The notes under the pieces: model-generated
What the model was told of the DNA's origin: nothing
Database searches by the model: none
The model's input: only the letters and a program-made list of their open reading frames with translations
Made by a program: the position numbers and the translations under genes
NCBI GenBank assembly: GCA_021796535.1
Contig: JAKABW010000005.1
Location: 1-64,000 of the forward strand
Length of the DNA: 64,000 bases
Reading direction: 5' to 3'
Origin: Actinomycetes bacterium
Lineage (GTDB): Bacteria > Actinomycetota > Acidimicrobiia > Acidimicrobiales > Bog-793
Shown here: positions 793-61,916 of the stretch, one piece after another
Layout: every line of letters begins with the position of its first letter
Position numbering within the stretch: the first letter of the stretch is position 1

Positions 793-1971
793 ATGGAGGT
801 AAAGGATTTAGGGGCGCGTATTAAAACACTTCGTGATGGAATAGAGTCTATAGAGTTAGCAAAGGATGCAGGTATTGACCCTAGTGTGCTCTCGCTTATA
901 GAGGATGGCAAACGGCCGGCGAAGGTTGGAGAGATCGCAAAAATAGCTGAATCTTTAGGAATATCTCCATTGGCGATTCTGGAACCAGACTCTCTACTTG
1001 CACGATTGCCTGTAGCGGCAAGATCGACCACCGATGCGCTGGACAAAGAGATGAACGTTCGTCTAGTTGCTCTTGCAGAACTTCATCATCTTTTGTTTTG
1101 TGCGAGCATTAAGCCAACAATATCAATTTCAGATCTTCCGGATATAGAGGAACTGGAGTGGTTGGATCAGTCAAAAAAATTCGCAAACTGGGCTAAAGAC
1201 AATCTAAAATATAGCAACGGGGATGATCGCTTTAGCAATCTAGTTGTCAGTATAGAAAATAATCTTGGAATTGATATTGTAGTTGAGCCATATGATGATG
1301 CTCTCGGTTCTGCAATCACTGACAAAGAATTCCCGTTGATTCTCATCAATTCGCAACAGCCCAAAAATAGAGCACTGTTTACGCTTGCCCATGAATTGGG
1401 GCATATCTTATTTGGAGATGGTAGAACTATGATGGTTCACCGAAATCTTGAAGGCAAAGACCCTGTAGAACGCAGAGCTAATGCTTTTGCAGCTGAACTT
1501 CTCATGCCTGAAAGGGAAATCAAGAAAATGCTTAAAGCAGAGGAAACCGATTTGATGCGTTTCGCGAAACTGATGGCGCACTTCTCCGTGAGCTGGGAGT
1601 CTCTTATTTACCGTCTCCACAATCTGAGGATTATTAACTCAGCAGGTCGAGATCATTTACGGACTGTTGGATTTGCTGGAATTATTAGATCAGTTGACGA
1701 CAGTGAGCTAGTCAAAAAGCTGGAATTACAGCGCTCGTACCCAGAGCTACATTTTCCGAAGCAGCTGTCAGAAAGGCTAAAGCTAGGATACGTAAGTGGA
1801 ATCGTGAGTGTTAATCCGTTAGCAGGTATCCTTCATCGTGACTCTAATGAACTGCTTGAGGAACTCGAAACTGAACCAATTGCAGAAGAATATATTACCG
1901 AGGCACTTAATCCACTAGCAGACTCAGTAGAGGAGTCCCAAGATGAAGTTTACGCCGGCGAAGCGGTTTAG
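793..1971 (+). CDS. XRE-family HTH protein fused to ImmA/IrrE-type metallopeptidase (antitoxin-like)
   Basis: 392 aa; N-terminal HTH (LGARIKTLRDGIESIELAKDAGIDPSVLSLIEDGKRPAKVGEIAKIAESLGI) and zinc motif TLAHELGHILFG. Confidence 0.85.
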   Translation: MEVKDLGARIKTLRDGIESIELAKDAGIDPSVLSLIEDGKRPAKVGEIAKIAESLGISPLAILEPDSLLARLPVAARSTTDALDKEMNVRLVALAELHHLLFCASIKPTISISDLPDIEELEWLDQSKKFANWAKDNLKYSNGDDRFSNLVVSIENNLGIDIVVEPYDDALGSAITDKEFPLILINSQQPKNRALFTLAHELGHILFGDGRTMMVHRNLEGKDPVERRANAFAAELLMPEREIKKMLKAEETDLMRFAKLMAHFSVSWESLIYRLHNLRIINSAGRDHLRTVGFAGIIRSVDDSELVKKLELQRSYPELHFPKQLSERLKLGYVSGIVSVNPLAGILHRDSNELLEELETEPIAEEYITEALNPLADSVEESQDEVYAGEAV

Positions 1972-2549
1972 TGCTCACCCCCATTTTATACGATGCCGTC
2001 ACCTTAAACAATTTTGGTGCTATCGATAGCTTGAATGTGCTACAACGCCGTCACGAGAACCACCCCGAGCCTCGTTGGACTGAGCAAGTGTACGAAGAGA
2101 TAGAAAAAGGTGTAAAACTTGGATATTCACATTGTAAGAGAGTCATTGATCAGAAGCTATGGTTTGGTGAACCTGCCAAACTCAACCATAAAGAACAGAT
2201 ACAATTCTTCCAAACCCTCGCGGCTTTAAGCGATGGTACCGGCAAAAATAAAGAAGAGCCTACTGTTACAAAGAACCACGGGGAAGCCGCATCCATCTTG
2301 GTGGCGGAGCGACATGAAGGAACTTTTATGACCGATGATGCCGCCGCATACGATTTTGCTAAGAAGCGATCGGAGACAAGGAAGACAAATGTGATTGCTT
2401 CGATTGACCTTCTTCGTGAGGCAGTTGCGATGGGAGAGTTGAATAATGATAAAGCCGTAGCTCTTGCAACCGGAATTGAGGAGAAAGGTCGGTTTCTACG
2501 CCGGATACATTCGGATAAAATTCGAGATCCTAACTATTTTAGTCGGTAG
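1971..2549 (+). CDS. PIN-like domain protein, candidate toxin partner
   Basis: 192 aa; GTG start overlaps the upstream TAG by 1 nt; PIN-like acidic motifs YDAVTLNNF, NHGEAASILVAE, FMTDDAAAYDFA. Confidence 0.65.
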   Translation: MLTPILYDAVTLNNFGAIDSLNVLQRRHENHPEPRWTEQVYEEIEKGVKLGYSHCKRVIDQKLWFGEPAKLNHKEQIQFFQTLAALSDGTGKNKEEPTVTKNHGEAASILVAERHEGTFMTDDAAAYDFAKKRSETRKTNVIASIDLLREAVAMGELNNDKAVALATGIEEKGRFLRRIHSDKIRDPNYFSR

Positions 2550-4214: not shown

Positions 4215-5342
4215 GGTGACACCTAAATAGCGCTCGATTGACCGACCGCTTCGAGGGCCACCCGACCTCGTCAGACCTTGGTGATGATCTGCTTGGCGGT
4301 CTTGGTCCGGATGAACGGAATGGGATCCTCGTTGTGATGGGCGATGTGGTCCTCGATGGCTTCGGCGACGCTACCGAAGCTACCCCGCCGGATCCTTTTG
4401 GTCGTGATCACTCCGAACCACCGCTCGACCTCATTTAGCCATGAGGAGCTCGTCGGGGTGAAGTGAAAGTGGAACCTCTTGTGCTGCTCCAGCCACGCCA
4501 TTACGTCGGGGTGCTTGTGGGTGCCGCAGTTGTCCAAGATGATGTTGATCTCCTTGCCCGGGGGACTTCACGATTGATAGGCGCAAAAAGGCCAAGAACT
4601 CTTCGTGGCGATGGAGCGATAAACACTCACCGATGAGCTCACCGGTGAGGACGTTGAGGACAGCGAAAAGCGTGGTGGTGCCGTGGCCTTGTAGTCATGG
4701 TTGACCCTGCTTGATCGGCAGGCTCGGTTGAGTGGGGTCCGGGCCTGGATCCGGGACTTCTCGTCGAAGCTGAACACGATGGCCCCGTCGGGTGGGTTCA
4801 TGTAAAGCCCCACGACGTCGATCAACTTGTCCTCAGAAGTGCGGGTCCGTCGAGATCTTGAAGGTCTTGACCAGATGAGGTTTGATCCCCCGGGCTTGCC
4901 ACTCCCGTTGGACGGTCGTGTGTGAGAGCCCGCAATGCTCGGCCATGGTGCGATTCGACCAGTGGGTGGCATCGCCCGGCGTCGTGTGCAAGGTGTCGTT
5001 GATCATCTGGTCGATCTGTTCTTGGGTGATCACCGGTTTGCGACCCCGGCCTTCATGCACCTCTCCCACCCACTCGACACCGTCTGACTCGAAGTGACTG
5101 CGCCACTTAGCACCGTTGAGCGTGAGACGTCGAGAGCCTCGGCGATGTTCCAAGTTGGCCACGCCGTCGCCAGCCATCAACAGGCCCTTGGCCTCCCTCA
5201 CCGCCCGGTAGGGCAACGACACGCTCGCTGCGATACCTTCGAGCGCAGTGCGCTCCTTCTTGTTCAGATGCAACGGCGCTCAGGAGGTCGGGCCATAGGT
5301 ACATCCTACAGATATCGCACGGCTATTTAGGTGTCACTACAC
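4211..5342. mobile_element. IS630-family insertion sequence (~1.13 kb) with terminal inverted repeats and TA target duplication
   Basis: Left end GTACGGTGACACCTAAATAGC, right end (rc) GTGTAGTGACACCTAAATAGC; TA at 4209-4210 and 5343-5344; encloses IS630-like transposase reading frames. Confidence 0.85.
4271..5273 (-). pseudogene. IS630-family transposase, disrupted by frameshifts/stops
   Basis: Homologous pieces split over ORFs 4833-5273 (HTH), 4568-4972 (VFSFDEKSRIQA) and 4271-4537 (DNCGTHKHPDV...SSSWLNEVERWF DDE region). Confidence 0.85.
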
Positions 5343-5843: not shown

Positions 5844-7559
5844 TCAGCGTCTATCGACCGGTGCATTGAAGTACTGCTTATTTACCACAACGGTCTCTGT
5901 ATGTGGATCTAACCACCCAACAAAGTCTGAAACACCGAGTTGAACCTTCCCGAGCCTGCCCGTCGACACGAGAGTACAGCTCTTGCGAGTCCTAGTGAGT
6001 GCGACCAAGAGTTGACACACCTCGGCATTCGTGGGATCAGCGCTGCGCGGGAAATGCCCCTGATTTACACCTACGACGAAGACATGCGCCGACTGTAATC
6101 CCTTCGATCCCATTAGCGAGGTGAGCATGATGGTAGGTTCATCCGGATCCGCTTCGGTCTCGCTCGGAGAGGACGGGACAAGGAAGCCGGCAAGATCGAC
6201 CGCGTTAATTCCAAGAACAGCAGCCAACCTCTCCCTCTCGTCAAGAGAGAGCGACTCCTCTGCTTCTAGTCGTCTCACTAGCTCGACAACCTCAAGTTGA
6301 GTGTCGACGAACACTACCGACAGCAGTGAGCGAAGCGTCTCTTCACTCGCTAATGCACTTCTCACGACTGACTCCCAATCAATGGGCTGAAGAAGCTGCA
6401 GAAGAACCCGCCACCCAAGATTCGAATCTGCATCATGGACCAGAAACTGATAGCCATCTAGCAGCAAAAGCTCTGGAGGGTTATTGCTTGATGTCACGAT
6501 GTTTGTGAACTTGTCGCGAAGGTATTGCTCAATCTGCCCAAGAAATGGATTCGGACCGATGATCAGGGCAGTTGGATACTTCTTAGCCCGCGACTCCTTA
6601 ATGTCCGCTTGGCTTATCTCTCTAATTCGTCCTTCAATGTATCGCCCCATGTATGGCGCAGATTTGGTTTGGGTCGAACATTTGGCATGAACAATCCTCG
6701 GGTACTCCGTACTGTCCTGACGCTTCTCGGGGATGAAGCACTCGTACGGCTTGTCGAGTCGGCCATCCAACAGTCCCAACGCTCGTGCACGCTCTACCAC
6801 GGTATGGGTCGCATCAACTACCACCTGAGTGCAGCGGGTGCAGTACGGCAATTCGAACCGTGCAAACTCCTCCCCGGAAGCAAGCTTACGAATGGCGTCG
6901 GGTGTGGCGTCACGAAAGGCGTATAGGGCCTGGTCGTCGTCACCAACAATGAGGATGGGGCTCTTCTTGCCAAGTTCACGGACAAACTCAACCTCGAGGG
7001 GACAAAAGTCTTGAAATTCGTCAACTACCACCTGCGGGTATGAGGGGACTCGGTCTGTGTCGGCTTCCAGCGCACGGAACACTCGATAAACAGCATCGTC
7101 AAAGCTTACGGCATCGTAGTAAGAGCCACTTGACAGTACCCTACCCATGGATGGATCGTCTACCGCGAGATTTCGGAACAGTCCCCCCAGACTGAGGGCA
7201 TCAAGGGTTACGCCATCAACAATCCGTAGATCTTCAAGAAACAACTGCGTCAACGGTGTATAGTAATGAACGCCATGAGTTACTCCCGTGCCATCAATCT
7301 GGTGTAGCAAACGCCGAGCGAACCCGTGGAAAGAGTAAACATCTGTATTGGCTCCAATTGCCTCATCCAGGTCTTTGACGAGGCCTAGAAGGAACGTCAT
7401 TGCGAGCCCTCGGTCTTCGATCGCTGCAAGCACCTGTTGAAATGTGTAGGTCTTACCGGTACCCGGTCCAGCCACAATTAGCTTTTTCCGAGCGTCGCTC
7501 TCCAGAATTCTCCTCAGCGCCTCTGCCCGCCGCTCATGAAATTCCTCATCGCTCAACAT
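5844..7559 (-). CDS. UvrD/PcrA-like superfamily 1 helicase
   Basis: 571 aa; VAGPGTGKTYTF, VVDEFQDFCPLE, LIVGDDDQALYAFR, LTSLMGSKGLQ, VALTRTRKSCTLV. Confidence 0.9.
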   Translation of the reverse strand: MLSDEEFHERRAEALRRILESDARKKLIVAGPGTGKTYTFQQVLAAIEDRGLAMTFLLGLVKDLDEAIGANTDVYSFHGFARRLLHQIDGTGVTHGVHYYTPLTQLFLEDLRIVDGVTLDALSLGGLFRNLAVDDPSMGRVLSSGSYYDAVSFDDAVYRVFRALEADTDRVPSYPQVVVDEFQDFCPLEVEFVRELGKKSPILIVGDDDQALYAFRDATPDAIRKLASGEEFARFELPYCTRCTQVVVDATHTVVERARALGLLDGRLDKPYECFIPEKRQDSTEYPRIVHAKCSTQTKSAPYMGRYIEGRIREISQADIKESRAKKYPTALIIGPNPFLGQIEQYLRDKFTNIVTSSNNPPELLLLDGYQFLVHDADSNLGWRVLLQLLQPIDWESVVRSALASEETLRSLLSVVFVDTQLEVVELVRRLEAEESLSLDERERLAAVLGINAVDLAGFLVPSSPSETEADPDEPTIMLTSLMGSKGLQSAHVFVVGVNQGHFPRSADPTNAEVCQLLVALTRTRKSCTLVSTGRLGKVQLGVSDFVGWLDPHTETVVVNKQYFNAPVDRR

Positions 7560-8492
7560 TCATGCCCCCAGAAGCGAATATGCGCTAATGAATACTTCGC
7601 CCGTACGGGAAGCGTGCTGCCGCTTGCGTGTCAATAGCTCCGGTAGTCCGATCCGATCCTCCAACACGGCGCTTAGATCTCTTCCGTCCATTAGAAATAG
7701 CTTTGGTCGATTCTGAGAATATGTAGTCAATACGGACTCTTGGAAGCCATTGACGGAAAGGAAGAGTCCAAGGGTGTTCTCCAGCTTGCGACCGATCTTG
7801 CCGCTAAAGGAATCCAGGTCAGCAACGTCTGCCCAGTCCTTCCTCCATTTGGCCTCGAATAGATATTCAGTTCCTTCGAATGTGAACGCTCCGTCGATTT
7901 GCTCGCCAACAATTCGAAATGACGCCTTCGCGTCTATATCGAAGAGCACAAACAGCTCGTTAGGTAGTCTCTCTAGTGCGTAGCCACGAGCTTGATGATC
8001 TTCCAGCCGCGTGAGTTCGTAGAAAAGATCACAAAGTTCTCCGAGCTTGATGCGAATTTCGCGTTGTGCGGCCGCACGAGCCTCCTCCTCCCGTTGCCGC
8101 CGGGTCGCCTCTTCTGATTCGGTACGAAGGGCACGGTATGGTTCAACGAGGCCTCGGAGGCTCGCAAGGGCAGCGACGGCCTCTTTATACTTCCGTTCGC
8201 CGTCCTCGACTCGCTTTAGGTAGCTCGGGTCGGTGATGTCAGCCGTAGCCAAAATCAAGGTGAGTAGCTCGTCGAGATACTTACCCTGATTAGCGGCCAT
8301 CGTTTCGACAAGGCGAGCAACTATATTGCGCTTGTAGTCCGTCCAATCGAGATGACCAACTAGCCCTACGTCTGGAAGTACAACGCTCAGATACTCTCTA
8401 AGATCCTTTTTGTACCAGAAAACCAGGCTCAGAGCTTCCTTGAGAGGCTTTAAGATAGAGGTGTTTACTCGCTTTGAGGAAGCCGCTGTCAT
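7560..8492 (-). CDS. Restriction-endonuclease-like protein (Mrr-type PD-(D/E)XK)
   Basis: 310 aa; IDGAFTFEGTEYLFEAKWRK matches D...ExK; start overlaps upstream stop (ATGA). Confidence 0.7.
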   Translation of the reverse strand: MTAASSKRVNTSILKPLKEALSLVFWYKKDLREYLSVVLPDVGLVGHLDWTDYKRNIVARLVETMAANQGKYLDELLTLILATADITDPSYLKRVEDGERKYKEAVAALASLRGLVEPYRALRTESEEATRRQREEEARAAAQREIRIKLGELCDLFYELTRLEDHQARGYALERLPNELFVLFDIDAKASFRIVGEQIDGAFTFEGTEYLFEAKWRKDWADVADLDSFSGKIGRKLENTLGLFLSVNGFQESVLTTYSQNRPKLFLMDGRDLSAVLEDRIGLPELLTRKRQHASRTGEVFISAYSLLGA

Positions 8493-9313
8493 AATCTAAC
8501 CCACTGCTCGTGACCGAGCGGTGCTTCGTTTAGCCGATCCCAGCGGGCTCGCCAGTCCGGCAGATGCTTGTCCATCAGCTTCGTGAAACGAGGACCGTGG
8601 CTACGTTCGAGCAGATGGGTCATCTCATGGACGGTCAAGTATTCTAGGCACTCGGGATGCTTCTTAGCCAGCTCAATATTGAGCCAGATGTGCCCAGTCT
8701 CCCGGTTACAGGAGCCCCACTTCGTCTTCATGCGGCGGATGGTCCACTTGGGCACAGTAACGCTCATCTTGCGCTCCCACCTCTCGATGAGGTCAGGGGT
8801 AGCCCGCCACAGTTGGTCGCGGTACCAGCGGCCGAGGATCTCCCGCCAATGCTTGAACGTCTTTACGCGGTAGAACTTGACGTTGCGTGCGAACCAGACC
8901 CTTTGCACCGTAGCAGAAGACACGCCCTGTGCCATGGGCATCGACCGGCACGACCAGTCCGTCTCACCCTCGGACTTTTCATGCATGATCGCTTGCACGA
9001 TCTTTGTGACCTTCTGCGGCGGGATCAACGGCTTCGGGCTCCGGCCCTTGCGAACCACACCGATCCCCTTCAGGCCGTCATCCATAAACCGCTTGCGCTG
9101 GTTGGATACCGTTGTCGGCGAAACCCCCAGTCGCACACCGATCACCGTGTCGGTGACACCGTCGGCGGATAGCAACAGTGCTCGGGCGCACTGCATATCA
9201 CGGTGTCTGGCGGTATGTAAGCGGGAGAGCTTCTCGAGCACTTTTCGCTGGCCGACGGAAAGCGGCATTGGGGCAGTAGGAGAGTGCATAGGCCATCCTA
9301 CCACAAGCCCCAC
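8489..9313 (-). CDS. Chimeric protein: IS630 transposase HTH/winged-helix region fused in frame to a YgjP/DUF45-type zinc metallopeptidase
   Basis: Residues ~17-154 read as IS630 transposase N-terminus; from ~155 WYRDQLW...MKTKWGSCNRETGHIWLN...VHEMTHLLERSHGPRF (HExxH plus third His). Confidence 0.85.
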   Translation of the reverse strand: MGLVVGWPMHSPTAPMPLSVGQRKVLEKLSRLHTARHRDMQCARALLLSADGVTDTVIGVRLGVSPTTVSNQRKRFMDDGLKGIGVVRKGRSPKPLIPPQKVTKIVQAIMHEKSEGETDWSCRSMPMAQGVSSATVQRVWFARNVKFYRVKTFKHWREILGRWYRDQLWRATPDLIERWERKMSVTVPKWTIRRMKTKWGSCNRETGHIWLNIELAKKHPECLEYLTVHEMTHLLERSHGPRFTKLMDKHLPDWRARWDRLNEAPLGHEQWVRL

Positions 9314-9333
9314 TTATTTGCGAGACCCTACAC
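8852..9333. mobile_element. Truncated IS630-family element (one end only) within the chimeric gene
   Basis: End (rc) GTGTAGGGTCTCGCAAATAAG followed by TA (9334-9335), parallel to the GTGTAG... end of the first IS630; no opposite terminus found. Confidence 0.65.
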
Positions 9334-9335
9334 TA

Positions 9336-9488
9336 GTCAAGGAGGAACGGGAGCGGATCGAGATCAAGCTGTACGCCGCCAAGCAGCAACTACTCGAGAC
9401 CGCCGTCAACTAGGACACCGTCGAGGCCAACCTGACGCTGGCCATGGGGCTGGTGCGGACTGCCGACAGAGATCACAAAAAGGGTTGA
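9336..9488 (+). pseudogene. C-terminal remnant of a large serine recombinase
   Basis: VKEERERIEIKLYAAKQQLLETAVN*DTVEANLTLAMGLVRTADRDHKKG*, resembling the coiled-coil/C-terminal segment of actinobacterial serine recombinases, with an in-frame stop. Confidence 0.55.
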
Positions 9489-9503: not shown

Positions 9504-9579
9504 TGGTGGAGGCGATGGGGCTCGAACCCACGACCTCTTGACTGCCAGTCAAGTGCTCTTCCAGCTGAGCTACGCCCCC
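9504..9579 (-). tRNA. tRNA-Ala(GGC), CCA encoded
   Basis: GGGGGCGTAGCTCAGCTGGAAGAGCACTTGACTGGCAGTCAAGAGGTCGTGGGTTCGAGCCCCATCGCCTCCACCA; anticodon loop CTGGCAG. Confidence 0.95.
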
Positions 9580-58546: not shown

Positions 58547-60820
58547 CTACTCAAATATTAGCTCCTCTTGCAGTTTATGATAAATATCTATCTTGACGTC
58601 GATATCTATCTCGCTGACCAACCAACCGGCCATTTGTGCTTTTTGCTTAAAGTCGTAAATTCTGTTTACACCTTTTATTTCTTTGAGCGTTACGACCAAT
58701 CCAAACTTGATACCATGGTCAGACCGCTTTCCCAAACGTTCTTTTGCCTTAACACTGATACCCCACATACCTCGTTCTGAATAGACTTTCCTTGCTTTAA
58801 GATGTTCTCCGTATTGCTCCCTTATATGCTTCGTATTGTCCCACTTGCGAAACGATTTTCTGGCCTCCGCCTCGTATGTATAGTGCCCTTCGACATTTTG
58901 CATATTCTTATTTATGGGTCTTATGCCTTTGTTTGGGTCGAATCTTCCCAAAGATACGTCAAGTTCGGTATTGGTATAGTCGACACCCTGCTTGAAGGAG
59001 CAGTCGGGAAAGTAGCAAAGGGTGGCTTTTGCCACAAAGGTGTGCTCGCCTTTGACAACCGGAACGGGAATACTATAAGTATAAGTATCGTATTGCAGCG
59101 ATTCACCGTTTATAACAAACTTTATTTCATGGTCTTTTGATCTTACAATGTTTTCAATTCTTCTCGGCACGACCCCGTGTCCGACCAGAGGCGCCAATTT
59201 TGAGTTATTTCCGGTATCATTCCAATCAGCGGCGGCATCCACTATCAAGGCCTTCGCCACTTCACGGCTGAGTCCCAACACCTCCGTCAAGTATGCCAGT
59301 TTGCGGGCAATCCACGGTGCGGCAAATGACGTGCCTGCCGTCAATTTATAACACGAAGTCGATTCGCATACCTGTATCAGTGTTTCGCAGTTTTGGCCGT
59401 CACCGCCAAATGTACTGACATCAGGTTTATTGAAAAAAGAAAGGACCCTGCCTCTTCTGGAATAAGACGCGGGGTTGCCTTTACTGTCGACAGAATTGAC
59501 CACAATTGCATTGATGGAGTCAGCGGGAGCACCGATCAACATCTCTTCTCTGTCGTCAGAGAGTTTATTGGTGCCGGCTATTACAAAAATAATGTCATTT
59601 TCGAACTGCAATCTGTCCAATACCGACGCCTCCGGAGAAATAAAGTTTTCATGTACTTCCAGCGGCGAGCCCAACGACAGGTTCCATACTTTAATATCGG
59701 GGTTGGCGGAAACTATTTCTTTTAGAAGATTCATCACACTAAAAGAACTGTATTTCCCGCCCTTGGCTACTCCAAAATGTCTCACCCTAAAACGACCGCA
59801 CCCATCGTCCAATGCGGGATTCAATTGAGGGCCGTCCACTATGATCGACGATACCGCCGTTCCGTGCCGGTAATCGCCATCGTCTTCCGGTATTTCCGGA
59901 TCGGTTTTGTCATGATATTCTACCCAATCGCCAAAATATACAGATTTGTCAAACAACGTATCGATGACTCCGATCACCGGCTCGTCGGCAGGCATGTCAA
60001 TGGAAAAAGACGGGCCGGATTCCGCATCCGCAGTAAAATCTTCCAGACTTAGATTATTTATATCTTCTAAAGCCATAGCAATAAGATACGGGGCCTTATT
60101 CTGAAGGAGTTCTATTGCTTTTGGCTGTAGCAGCATCATGGTATTGGTGTCGTAAAACATTTTATAATCTGTTGAGGCTATCCCAATATTTCTTAAAATC
60201 ACATCCATATCCTCATCAGTTGCATATAAAGTGACAACCTGTCGAGTGCCGGGATTCGCACTTTGATGTGGGATGCCGAAACTTTTTATGTAGTATGAAT
60301 CGACAATGATCTGTAAAAAATTTGATTTCGAGATGGCGTAATCAAGAAACTCAATACCGTGAGAGGCTCCATTAGCACCTATATCTTCTTCTATACACTT
60401 CTCGGTAATGCCGTTGCTAAAATGCTCGTCCAGGATTTTGATACTGTTTTCGATATTGGTAACGGTATTCCGAACTACCTCACGCATAACGTAATGAGTA
60501 ATTACATGTTTCGGATTTTTTACATCTGTATTGTCAAAACGGGCACCCACAACAGACTCATTTGGCGGTTTATCATTTTTTAAGTATGCGCTTATTCTAT
60601 TGCTCTTTGCCATGACACCTATATAGTGTACGTCTATCAGGATACCCTTGATAAGTCTCTCACCGTTCCAGTATTGTTGAATATCTTTTAAGTCGTTTAG
60701 TAACTTTCTCAAGTGGGTAGAAGTGACCGGTTTTGCGTTTTTCGGAAGCCTCGGGGGACCCGGCCTACCGGTATTCGGTCTGTGATTTAAATTACCTTTC
60801 AGCTGCAAAATATTGTTCAT
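58547..60820 (-). CDS. Subtilisin-like (S8) serine protease, IetS-like
   Basis: Catalytic triad: VIGVIDTLF (D), DYRHGTAVSS (H), AGTSFAAPWIA (S); ~200-aa C-terminal extension; partner of the AAA ATPase. Confidence 0.85.
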   Translation of the reverse strand: MNNILQLKGNLNHRPNTGRPGPPRLPKNAKPVTSTHLRKLLNDLKDIQQYWNGERLIKGILIDVHYIGVMAKSNRISAYLKNDKPPNESVVGARFDNTDVKNPKHVITHYVMREVVRNTVTNIENSIKILDEHFSNGITEKCIEEDIGANGASHGIEFLDYAISKSNFLQIIVDSYYIKSFGIPHQSANPGTRQVVTLYATDEDMDVILRNIGIASTDYKMFYDTNTMMLLQPKAIELLQNKAPYLIAMALEDINNLSLEDFTADAESGPSFSIDMPADEPVIGVIDTLFDKSVYFGDWVEYHDKTDPEIPEDDGDYRHGTAVSSIIVDGPQLNPALDDGCGRFRVRHFGVAKGGKYSSFSVMNLLKEIVSANPDIKVWNLSLGSPLEVHENFISPEASVLDRLQFENDIIFVIAGTNKLSDDREEMLIGAPADSINAIVVNSVDSKGNPASYSRRGRVLSFFNKPDVSTFGGDGQNCETLIQVCESTSCYKLTAGTSFAAPWIARKLAYLTEVLGLSREVAKALIVDAAADWNDTGNNSKLAPLVGHGVVPRRIENIVRSKDHEIKFVINGESLQYDTYTYSIPVPVVKGEHTFVAKATLCYFPDCSFKQGVDYTNTELDVSLGRFDPNKGIRPINKNMQNVEGHYTYEAEARKSFRKWDNTKHIREQYGEHLKARKVYSERGMWGISVKAKERLGKRSDHGIKFGLVVTLKEIKGVNRIYDFKQKAQMAGWLVSEIDIDVKIDIYHKLQEELIFE

Positions 60821-60824
60821 ATAC

Positions 60825-61916
60825 TTATTCTTTCAATTCACGGGATACCTGACTTTTTGAAACACCTGTCAAAATTTCTATATCGCGGACAGAAAACCCT
60901 TCTTGTTGAAGCTTTTTTAAGTCACTGCTTGTCTGGTGTATGGCTTCGTATAGCTTTTTCAAATAATCGAATTCACTCGATGAATCACTGAAAGCCATCG
61001 CCCTTTTTATTATATTTTTCAGTTCGCCGGGATAAGGGATATCGTTCATGGTAGCCATGATTTTCCTGAACAAATTTATATTGCGTCCGGCAAATTTAAA
61101 CTTTGGCAACAAACTATTGACAATTGATTCGGCAACTTCCATGAGGTCTTCTCTGCTGTATCTGTTAAAATTGATGACAGCATCAAATCGTCTTGTTAAA
61201 GCTTTGTCAAAGCGATTATACAGGTTCGTGGTAGCCACAAGCACGACACTGTCGCTTAGTCTGTCAAGACCTTTGAGGACTGATGAAGTGACCCGCCCCA
61301 TTTCTCGCAAATCGTTAGAGTTGACGCGATCCATGGCTATTGCATCTATTTCATCAAATAAGATAATCACTTGATCCGGATTTGGCAGAGCATATACCTC
61401 TTGGAATAACGATGCAATATTCTTTGAAGTTTGACCAAGTTTACTGTCAATAATACTGTCGAAATTAACGGCATACAGGTCACGCTTCAGTATGCGTGCT
61501 ATCTGTTTTGCAGTTTCGGTCTTACCTGTACCCGGATCGCCTTCAAATAAAAACTTGTTCATCCCGCCATTGTAATTAATTGAATTAATAACACCCAACA
61601 CATCATTTTTGATCAAAACAGGAAGCGGTAACGGGGTGGCATCCAAATTTATCTTACAGAAAAAGGACGATTCGTATTCGCTGCTTTGCGGCAGAAAAGT
61701 ATTGACGCCGGAAAGCAAGGCCATTATATATTCAGCCAGTTGTGAATCACCGCTCTGATCAAACAAGCGCGCTATGATGTAAGCTTCGTTTCTGAAACCG
61801 GCCTCGTTATTCTCAGAGTGGTACTTTATAAGATTGAGTATGTTTCTTTTGCGCATTTGTTCCGCCACAAGCCCATCATAACAACCTTGGGACAAGGTTA
61901 CAATATTTTGGGACAC
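60825..61916 (-). CDS. AAA ATPase, IetA-like, with C-terminal HTH-like tail
   Basis: FEGDPGTGKTETAKQIAR, VIILFDEIDAIAMDR, LVATTNLYNRFDKALTRRFD; tail GFSVRDIEILTGVSKSQVSRELKE; 4-nt gap to protease gene. Confidence 0.87.
   Translation of the reverse strand: MSQNIVTLSQGCYDGLVAEQMRKRNILNLIKYHSENNEAGFRNEAYIIARLFDQSGDSQLAEYIMALLSGVNTFLPQSSEYESSFFCKINLDATPLPLPVLIKNDVLGVINSINYNGGMNKFLFEGDPGTGKTETAKQIARILKRDLYAVNFDSIIDSKLGQTSKNIASLFQEVYALPNPDQVIILFDEIDAIAMDRVNSNDLREMGRVTSSVLKGLDRLSDSVVLVATTNLYNRFDKALTRRFDAVINFNRYSREDLMEVAESIVNSLLPKFKFAGRNINLFRKIMATMNDIPYPGELKNIIKRAMAFSDSSSEFDYLKKLYEAIHQTSSDLKKLQQEGFSVRDIEILTGVSKSQVSRELKE

What the first reader, a model, noticed from the sequence alone, without database searches (positions are those of the whole stretch)
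5844..9313. Three-gene metallopeptidase / PD-(D/E)XK nuclease / UvrD-like helicase operon: candidate anti-invader system
Seen: three minus-strand genes, stop/start overlapping (ATGA at 8489-8492) or directly abutting (7559/7560), encoding a YgjP/DUF45-type zinc metallopeptidase, a protein with an Mrr-like D...ExK motif, and a compact 571-aa SF1 helicase. They lie in an IS-rich segment next to a tRNA. Established: UvrD-like helicases (e.g. GajB of Gabija), Mrr-type nucleases and YgjP peptidases (beside type I restriction genes) recur in defence loci. Inference: this specific trio may be an undescribed or poorly described defence module; I do not recognise it as a named system.
Basis: partly seen in the sequence, partly recalled or inferred. 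Interest (0 to 1): 0.75.

Follow-up and report, generated by a model that had tools for sequence, protein, structure and literature searches.

The report
Severed tail of restriction operon
These genes are what is left of a larger bacterial DNA-restriction operon whose main genes were cut away by a jumping gene, leaving a conserved DNA-cutting enzyme and a rare small helicase that probably still help resist foreign DNA.

Summary
The three minus-strand ORFs are real, but they are not an intact three-gene system. ORF 1 is a chimera: about 155 codons of a truncated IS630 transposase joined in frame at 8848-8851 to the C-terminal half of a YgjP metallopeptidase. The middle gene encodes an Mrr-like PD-(D/E)XK nuclease behind an all-helical N-terminal domain; the third is a compact SF1A helicase.

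The source is visible. In a same-order genome (G134), a complete type I restriction operon hsdM-hsdS-ymh-hsdR-ygjP-nuclease is 78% DNA-identical to the window over exactly ygjP-3'+nuclease (7548-8847). A second (G859) carries the 83%-identical nuclease in the tail of another hsdMSR operon. The helicase has two full-length relatives: one directly after hsdM-hsdS-hsdR-short ygjP (Dormibacterota), one beside DNA methyltransferases (Paraconexibacter). So the helicase too is a restriction-operon accessory.

The window is therefore the severed tail of a type I restriction operon, at a variable site by tRNA-Ala, missing hsdMSR and the 5' part of ygjP. The nuclease is strongly constrained (dN/dS 0.045). 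The full trio was found nowhere else; each pair recurs, but the nuclease-helicase pairing arose separately. Most likely a restriction accessory nuclease plus helicase; anti-invader function is inferred, untested.

The parts
9504..9579 (-). tRNA-Ala(ggc); edge of the variable region. DNA homology with three same-family genomes stops at its 3' end
8851..9339 (-). Truncated IS630 family element (5' part only); supplies the first ~155 codons of the chimeric ORF
   Evidence: NF033545 E=3.5e-12; 84% DNA identity to G000:C14 copy, ending at 8851
8489..8848 (-). ygjP 3' fragment (zinc metallopeptidase core with HExxH); 5' part of the gene missing; in frame with the IS630 fragment
   Evidence: PF01863 positions 95-206/207; 79% aa identity to residues 126-242 of the intact G134 YgjP; dN/dS 0.09
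7560..8492 (-). 310-aa nuclease: all-helical N-terminal domain (~11-162) plus Mrr-like PD-(D/E)XK domain (~166-297), motif E174, D200, E213-x-K215
   Evidence: 88% and 83% identical genes in type I RM operon tails
5844..7559 (-). 571-aa compact SF1A (UvrD/GajB-like) helicase with all core motifs; no counterpart at this position in G134
   Evidence: PF00580 1.3e-18; PADLOC GajB 5.7e-25; full-length relatives L023 and L024
4271..5273 (-). Second, frameshifted IS630 transposase (different element) on the far side of the locus
   Evidence: NF033545 matches in three frames; no DNA similarity to the 8851-9339 fragment

Best explanation
The locus is the surviving 3' tail of a type I restriction-modification operon. 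The ancestral order was hsdM-hsdS-(x)-hsdR-ygjP-nuclease, followed by an interchangeable accessory gene (a 224-aa gene in G134, a compact SF1 helicase here). An IS630 element and a deletion removed hsdM, hsdS, hsdR and the 5' part of ygjP, fusing the rest of ygjP in frame to the transposase start (shown by comparison). The nuclease gene is under purifying selection and the helicase frame is open with all motifs (shown), so both are probably still made. Inferred mechanism: the helical N-terminal domain senses or assembles on invading DNA, the Mrr-like domain cuts it, and the helicase unwinds or clears the cut DNA, as GajB is thought to do in Gabija; in the parent operon this would back up HsdR. 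Here it would work without methylation-guided restriction, closer to a type IV-like or abortive nuclease. The YgjP remnant is probably non-essential.
For: Complete operon in G134: N6_Mtase, Methylase_S, Hypoth_ymh, HSDR_N/SWI2_SNF2, full YgjP, nuclease; DNA homology 78% over exactly 7548-8847, bounded by the IS630 junction and the helicase start. G859: hsdM-hsdS-hsdR-AAA-DUF3644-nuclease-DUF2130-GajA-GajB. The window, G134 and G859 nucleases form one clade, support 100/98. L127: hsdM-hsdS-x-nuclease-hsdR. Helicase relative L023 (46%) follows hsdM-hsdS-hsdR-short YgjP with a 3-nt gap; L024 (43%) lies beside methyltransferase genes. No HSDR_N in the window's genome, controls positive in 9 of 14. 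dN/dS 0.045; lineage changes 17 against 12, no clear acceleration. Nuclease model pLDDT 88.7, best PDB match MspJI.
Against: No expression or activity data. dN/dS mostly reflects time before the deletion. The genome is 92% complete, so hsd genes could lie in missing sequence; hsdM and hsdS were not searched separately. The helicase is absent from the G134 tail and no close relative of it is in the G859 tail, so it may have been acquired independently. Nuclease relatives are mostly solo genes, so nuclease and helicase need not cooperate.
Confidence: 0.72

Rival explanations
1. Nuclease and helicase are an autonomous two-gene anti-invader module (Gabija-like logic with an Mrr-type nuclease in place of GajA) that merely sits in restriction loci.
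For: The two genes abut with no spacer. In viral contig L121 a full-length nuclease relative is followed after 30 nt by a GajB-like helicase.
Against: The L121 helicase is from another clade (24% identity over part) and its nuclease is not close to the window's, so the pairing arose separately. In G134 and G859 the nuclease has no such helicase next to it. L023 and L024 have the helicase without the nuclease.
Confidence: 0.2
2. Dead relic: a degraded restriction locus with no function, not yet eroded.
For: Truncated ygjP fused to a truncated IS; decayed IS630 on the other side; hsdMSR gone; no sigma-70-like promoter found by a simple scan.
Against: Two fully open frames (310 and 571 codons) with intact motifs; no marked excess of amino-acid changes on the window lineage (17 against 12); dN/dS 0.045.
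Confidence: 0.25
3. A novel three-gene defence system of metallopeptidase, nuclease and helicase, as first read.
For: Contiguous, overlapping genes; the peptidase core retains HExxH. A short YgjP of 129 aa lies between hsdR and the helicase in L023, so a short YgjP can be a natural part.
Against: ORF 1 begins as IS630 transposase; the trio was found nowhere else; the intact relatives are type I RM operons.
Confidence: 0.04

Closest known systems
Type I restriction-modification operon with accessory genes (precedent: TgvAB embedded in the Vibrio cholerae VPI-2 type I operon, PMC11411939)
   Same: Accessory nuclease gene coupled to hsdMSR-ygjP by ATGA overlaps; the parent operon is intact in G134 and another hsdMSR operon carries the gene in G859
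   Different: In the window hsdM, hsdS, hsdR and the 5' part of ygjP are gone. TgvAB is GmrSD-like and embedded; this is an Mrr-like nuclease in the tail
Gabija (GajA + GajB)
   Same: Helicase is GajB-like by profile (PADLOC 5.7e-25); nuclease gene next to SF1 helicase gene
   Different: No GajA (OLD-like ATPase-TOPRIM); the nuclease is PD-(D/E)XK; the helicase matches GajB models mainly over residues 150-260. G859 carries a genuine Gabija downstream of the related nuclease
Mrr / MspJI type modification-dependent (type IV) nucleases
   Same: Mrr_cat fold; best solved match MspJI, then AspBHI; relatives score for PF04471
   Different: N-terminal domain is a helical bundle, not the winged helix of Mrr or the SRA-like domain of MspJI (domains as in PMC12707154); modification dependence unknown
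YgjP-like metallopeptidase (PF01863)
   Same: C-terminal core with HExxH; sits after hsdR in relatives G134 and L023
   Different: N-terminal half replaced by IS630 transposase sequence

Membership tests
Type I restriction-modification system | HsdR, HsdM and HsdS present | tested here: not met
   None in the locus; no HSDR_N in the 92%-complete genome, controls positive. HsdM/HsdS not searched separately genome-wide
Type I restriction-modification system | Locus derives from the tail of such an operon | tested here: met
   78% DNA identity to the ygjP-nuclease tail of the complete G134 operon, bounded at both ends
Gabija | GajA: OLD-like ATPase with TOPRIM nuclease | tested here: not met
   No such gene between tRNA-Ala and the second IS
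Gabija | GajB: UvrD-like helicase | tested here: inconclusive
   Profile 5.7e-25, but also generic UvrD; best stretch covers residues 174-260
Mrr-type PD-(D/E)XK nuclease | Mrr_cat fold with D...E-x-K | tested here: met
   Relatives pass the PF04471 cut-off; E174, D200, E213, K215 invariant in nine sequences; model pLDDT 88.7, MspJI best PDB match
Mrr (type IV restriction) | N-terminal winged-helix DNA-binding domain | tested here: not met
   Model has only helices in residues 11-162
Mrr (type IV restriction) | Cuts modified DNA | not testable with these tools
   Needs biochemistry
YgjP metallopeptidase | Complete YgjP domain | tested here: not met
   Only profile positions 95-206 of 207, fused to transposase; the HExxH core remains
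SF1A (UvrD/Rep) helicase | Walker A, DExx, GDxxQ, motif V/VI arginines | tested here: met
   PF00580/AAA_19; GPGTGK, DExQD, GDDDQALY, KGL and motif VI R523 invariant in three relatives

The most novel reading that the evidence does not exclude
A previously unnamed pairing of an Mrr-like nuclease carrying a helical sensor domain with a rare compact SF1A helicase family works as a stand-alone anti-invader module after being freed from its type I restriction operon: restriction operons as nurseries from which new defence systems bud off.
Probability: 0.18. Interest if true: 0.6.

Novelty: new variant of a known kind. Interest (0 to 1): 0.4.

Why it matters
It explains an apparently new three-gene defence system as the severed tail of a type I restriction operon, a warning for guilt-by-association searches. 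It also points to two uncharacterised accessory families of restriction operons: a helical-domain Mrr-like nuclease that moves as a single gene between unrelated hsdMSR operons, and a rare compact SF1 helicase that follows hsdR-ygjP in another phylum. Both can be tested for whether they back up type I restriction.

Tried and rejected
Helicase structure from three sequences: pLDDT 39.9, not used. Viral-contig scan with the helicase family: only generic UvrD proteins. Helicase in plasmids: no relative beyond generic; phages weak only. SEFIR-UvrD fusion in Rhodococcus (L131) was checked as a possible nuclease-helicase fusion: its N-terminus is SEFIR, not the nuclease. Integration-site duplication of the tRNA 3' end: none in the window, and no second exact copy in the genome. 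Search of the window's genome with the G134 HsdR: nothing, repeated with a controlled family search. Papers on YgjP next to restriction genes: no relevant text found in the held library. Gabija membership rejected for lack of GajA.

Full report
Observation. The three ORFs exist at the stated coordinates, with the ATGA overlap at 8489-8492 and genes 2 and 3 abutting at 7560/7559. A tRNA-Ala(ggc) lies at 9504-9579 and a decayed IS630 transposase at 4271-5273. The helicase (PF00580, 1.3e-18) and YgjP (PF01863, 3.1e-36) calls hold.

ORF 1 is a chimera. Its residues 43-155 match IS630 transposase and 151-263 match only positions 95-206 of 207 of YgjP. At DNA level, 84% identity to another IS630 copy of the same genome stops at 8851, and 78% identity to an intact ygjP begins at 8847 (alignment). 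The join keeps the frame. The HExxH core is kept; the N-terminal half is lost. A naturally short YgjP (129 aa, profile 114-194) occurs in L023, so the remnant cannot be declared dead.

The middle protein. It has no family match itself (only a weak PHROG of unknown function, E 0.058), but relatives at 21-58% identity pass the Mrr_cat cut-off, and E174, D200, E213 and K215 are invariant over nine sequences. A model from nine sequences has pLDDT 88.7: helices over 11-162, then an alpha/beta nuclease domain. The best solved matches are MspJI and AspBHI (E 7e-4 to 1e-2; low TM-scores because only the C-terminal domain aligns).

Where it comes from. In G134 (same order) the gene order is hsdM, hsdS, Hypoth_ymh, hsdR, intact ygjP, nuclease (88% identical), then a 224-aa gene of unknown family, not the helicase. 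DNA homology to the window covers 7548-8847 only: it ends at the IS630 junction on one side and 12 bases into the helicase on the other. In G859 (same order) an 83% identical nuclease lies behind a different hsdMSR set, in the order hsdM-hsdS-hsdR-AAA ATPase-DUF3644-nuclease-DUF2130-GajA-GajB. G134 and G859 share DNA similarity in the nuclease gene only, so it moves as a single gene. In both, the nuclease start overlaps the preceding stop by ATGA, as in the window. These three nucleases form a clade with 100/98 support. A more distant relative sits between hsdS and hsdR in viral contig L127. Other relatives are mostly solo, often near AbiE, Hachiman, Qat, Gabija or Abi genes.

The helicase. 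Three full-length members were found: the window, L023 (Dormibacterota, 46%) and L024 (Paraconexibacter, 43%), with all SF1A motifs invariant. L023 reads hsdM-hsdS-hsdR-short ygjP-helicase with an ATGA overlap and a 3-nt gap. L024 is beside two methyltransferase genes and a protein with an HNH-like motif, read divergently. It is rare: 1 of 296 class genomes (own) and one 94-aa fragment in 397 phylum genomes. The genome-contig scan is pattern-based, so the number found is a lower bound. The helicase is thus itself a restriction-operon accessory.

Do nuclease and helicase belong together? In L121 a full-length nuclease relative is followed after 30 nt by an SF1 helicase, but that helicase is from another GajB-like clade and the nuclease is not closest to the window's. 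The pairing therefore arose at least twice, which is suggestive, not proof.

Selection and setting. Nuclease window against G134: dN 0.067, dS 1.5, ratio 0.045; YgjP fragment 0.09. Three-way comparison: 17 changes on the window branch against 12 on G134's, no clear acceleration. leuS-tRNA-Ala is syntenic in three same-family genomes, and homology stops at 9506, at the tRNA 3' end; what follows differs in each. It is a variable site; no attachment duplication or integrase was found. No HSDR_N is found in the genome.

Conclusion. Shown: chimera, parent operon, nuclease fold, helicase motifs, restriction-operon company of both genes. Inferred: that nuclease and helicase are expressed, act on invading DNA, and cooperate. 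Precedent for accessory defence genes lodged in a type I operon is TgvAB (PMC11411939).

Noticed in passing
window 58547-60820 (-) and 60825-61916 (-): An IetAS anti-phage system: AAA ATPase (IetA, PADLOC 1.5e-45) followed by subtilase (IetS, 4.3e-65), in a low-GC stretch (43.6% for IetS).
   Followed up: partly
window 793-2549 (+): HTH + M78 (ImmA/IrrE-type) peptidase, PADLOC RmrA/CapP-like, overlapping by one base a 192-aa gene of unknown family.
   Followed up: partly
L018:1561-3138 (-) (G164:C14): Retron-type reverse transcriptase (type XI/XII-like RT, PADLOC 5e-132) fused to the same Mrr-like nuclease domain (PF04471 2e-6) instead of the protease or TIR of known fusions: possible new retron effector.
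   Followed up: partly
L152:25-15529 (G859:C171): Defence supercluster hsdM-hsdS-hsdR-AAA-DUF3644 (PDC-S19)-Mrr-like nuclease-DUF2130-GajA-GajB on one strand.
   Followed up: partly
L131:3365-5929 (Rhodococcus rhodochrous plasmid NZ_CP120358.1): SEFIR domain fused to a GajB-like UvrD helicase in one 854-aa protein; no GajA next to it in the annotation.
   Followed up: partly
window 9504-9579: 3' side of tRNA-Ala(ggc) next to leuS is a variable site in four genomes of the family.
   Followed up: partly
L016:13015-13689 (G134): 224-aa gene of no known family occupies the place held by the helicase in the window: a second interchangeable accessory gene.
   Followed up: no
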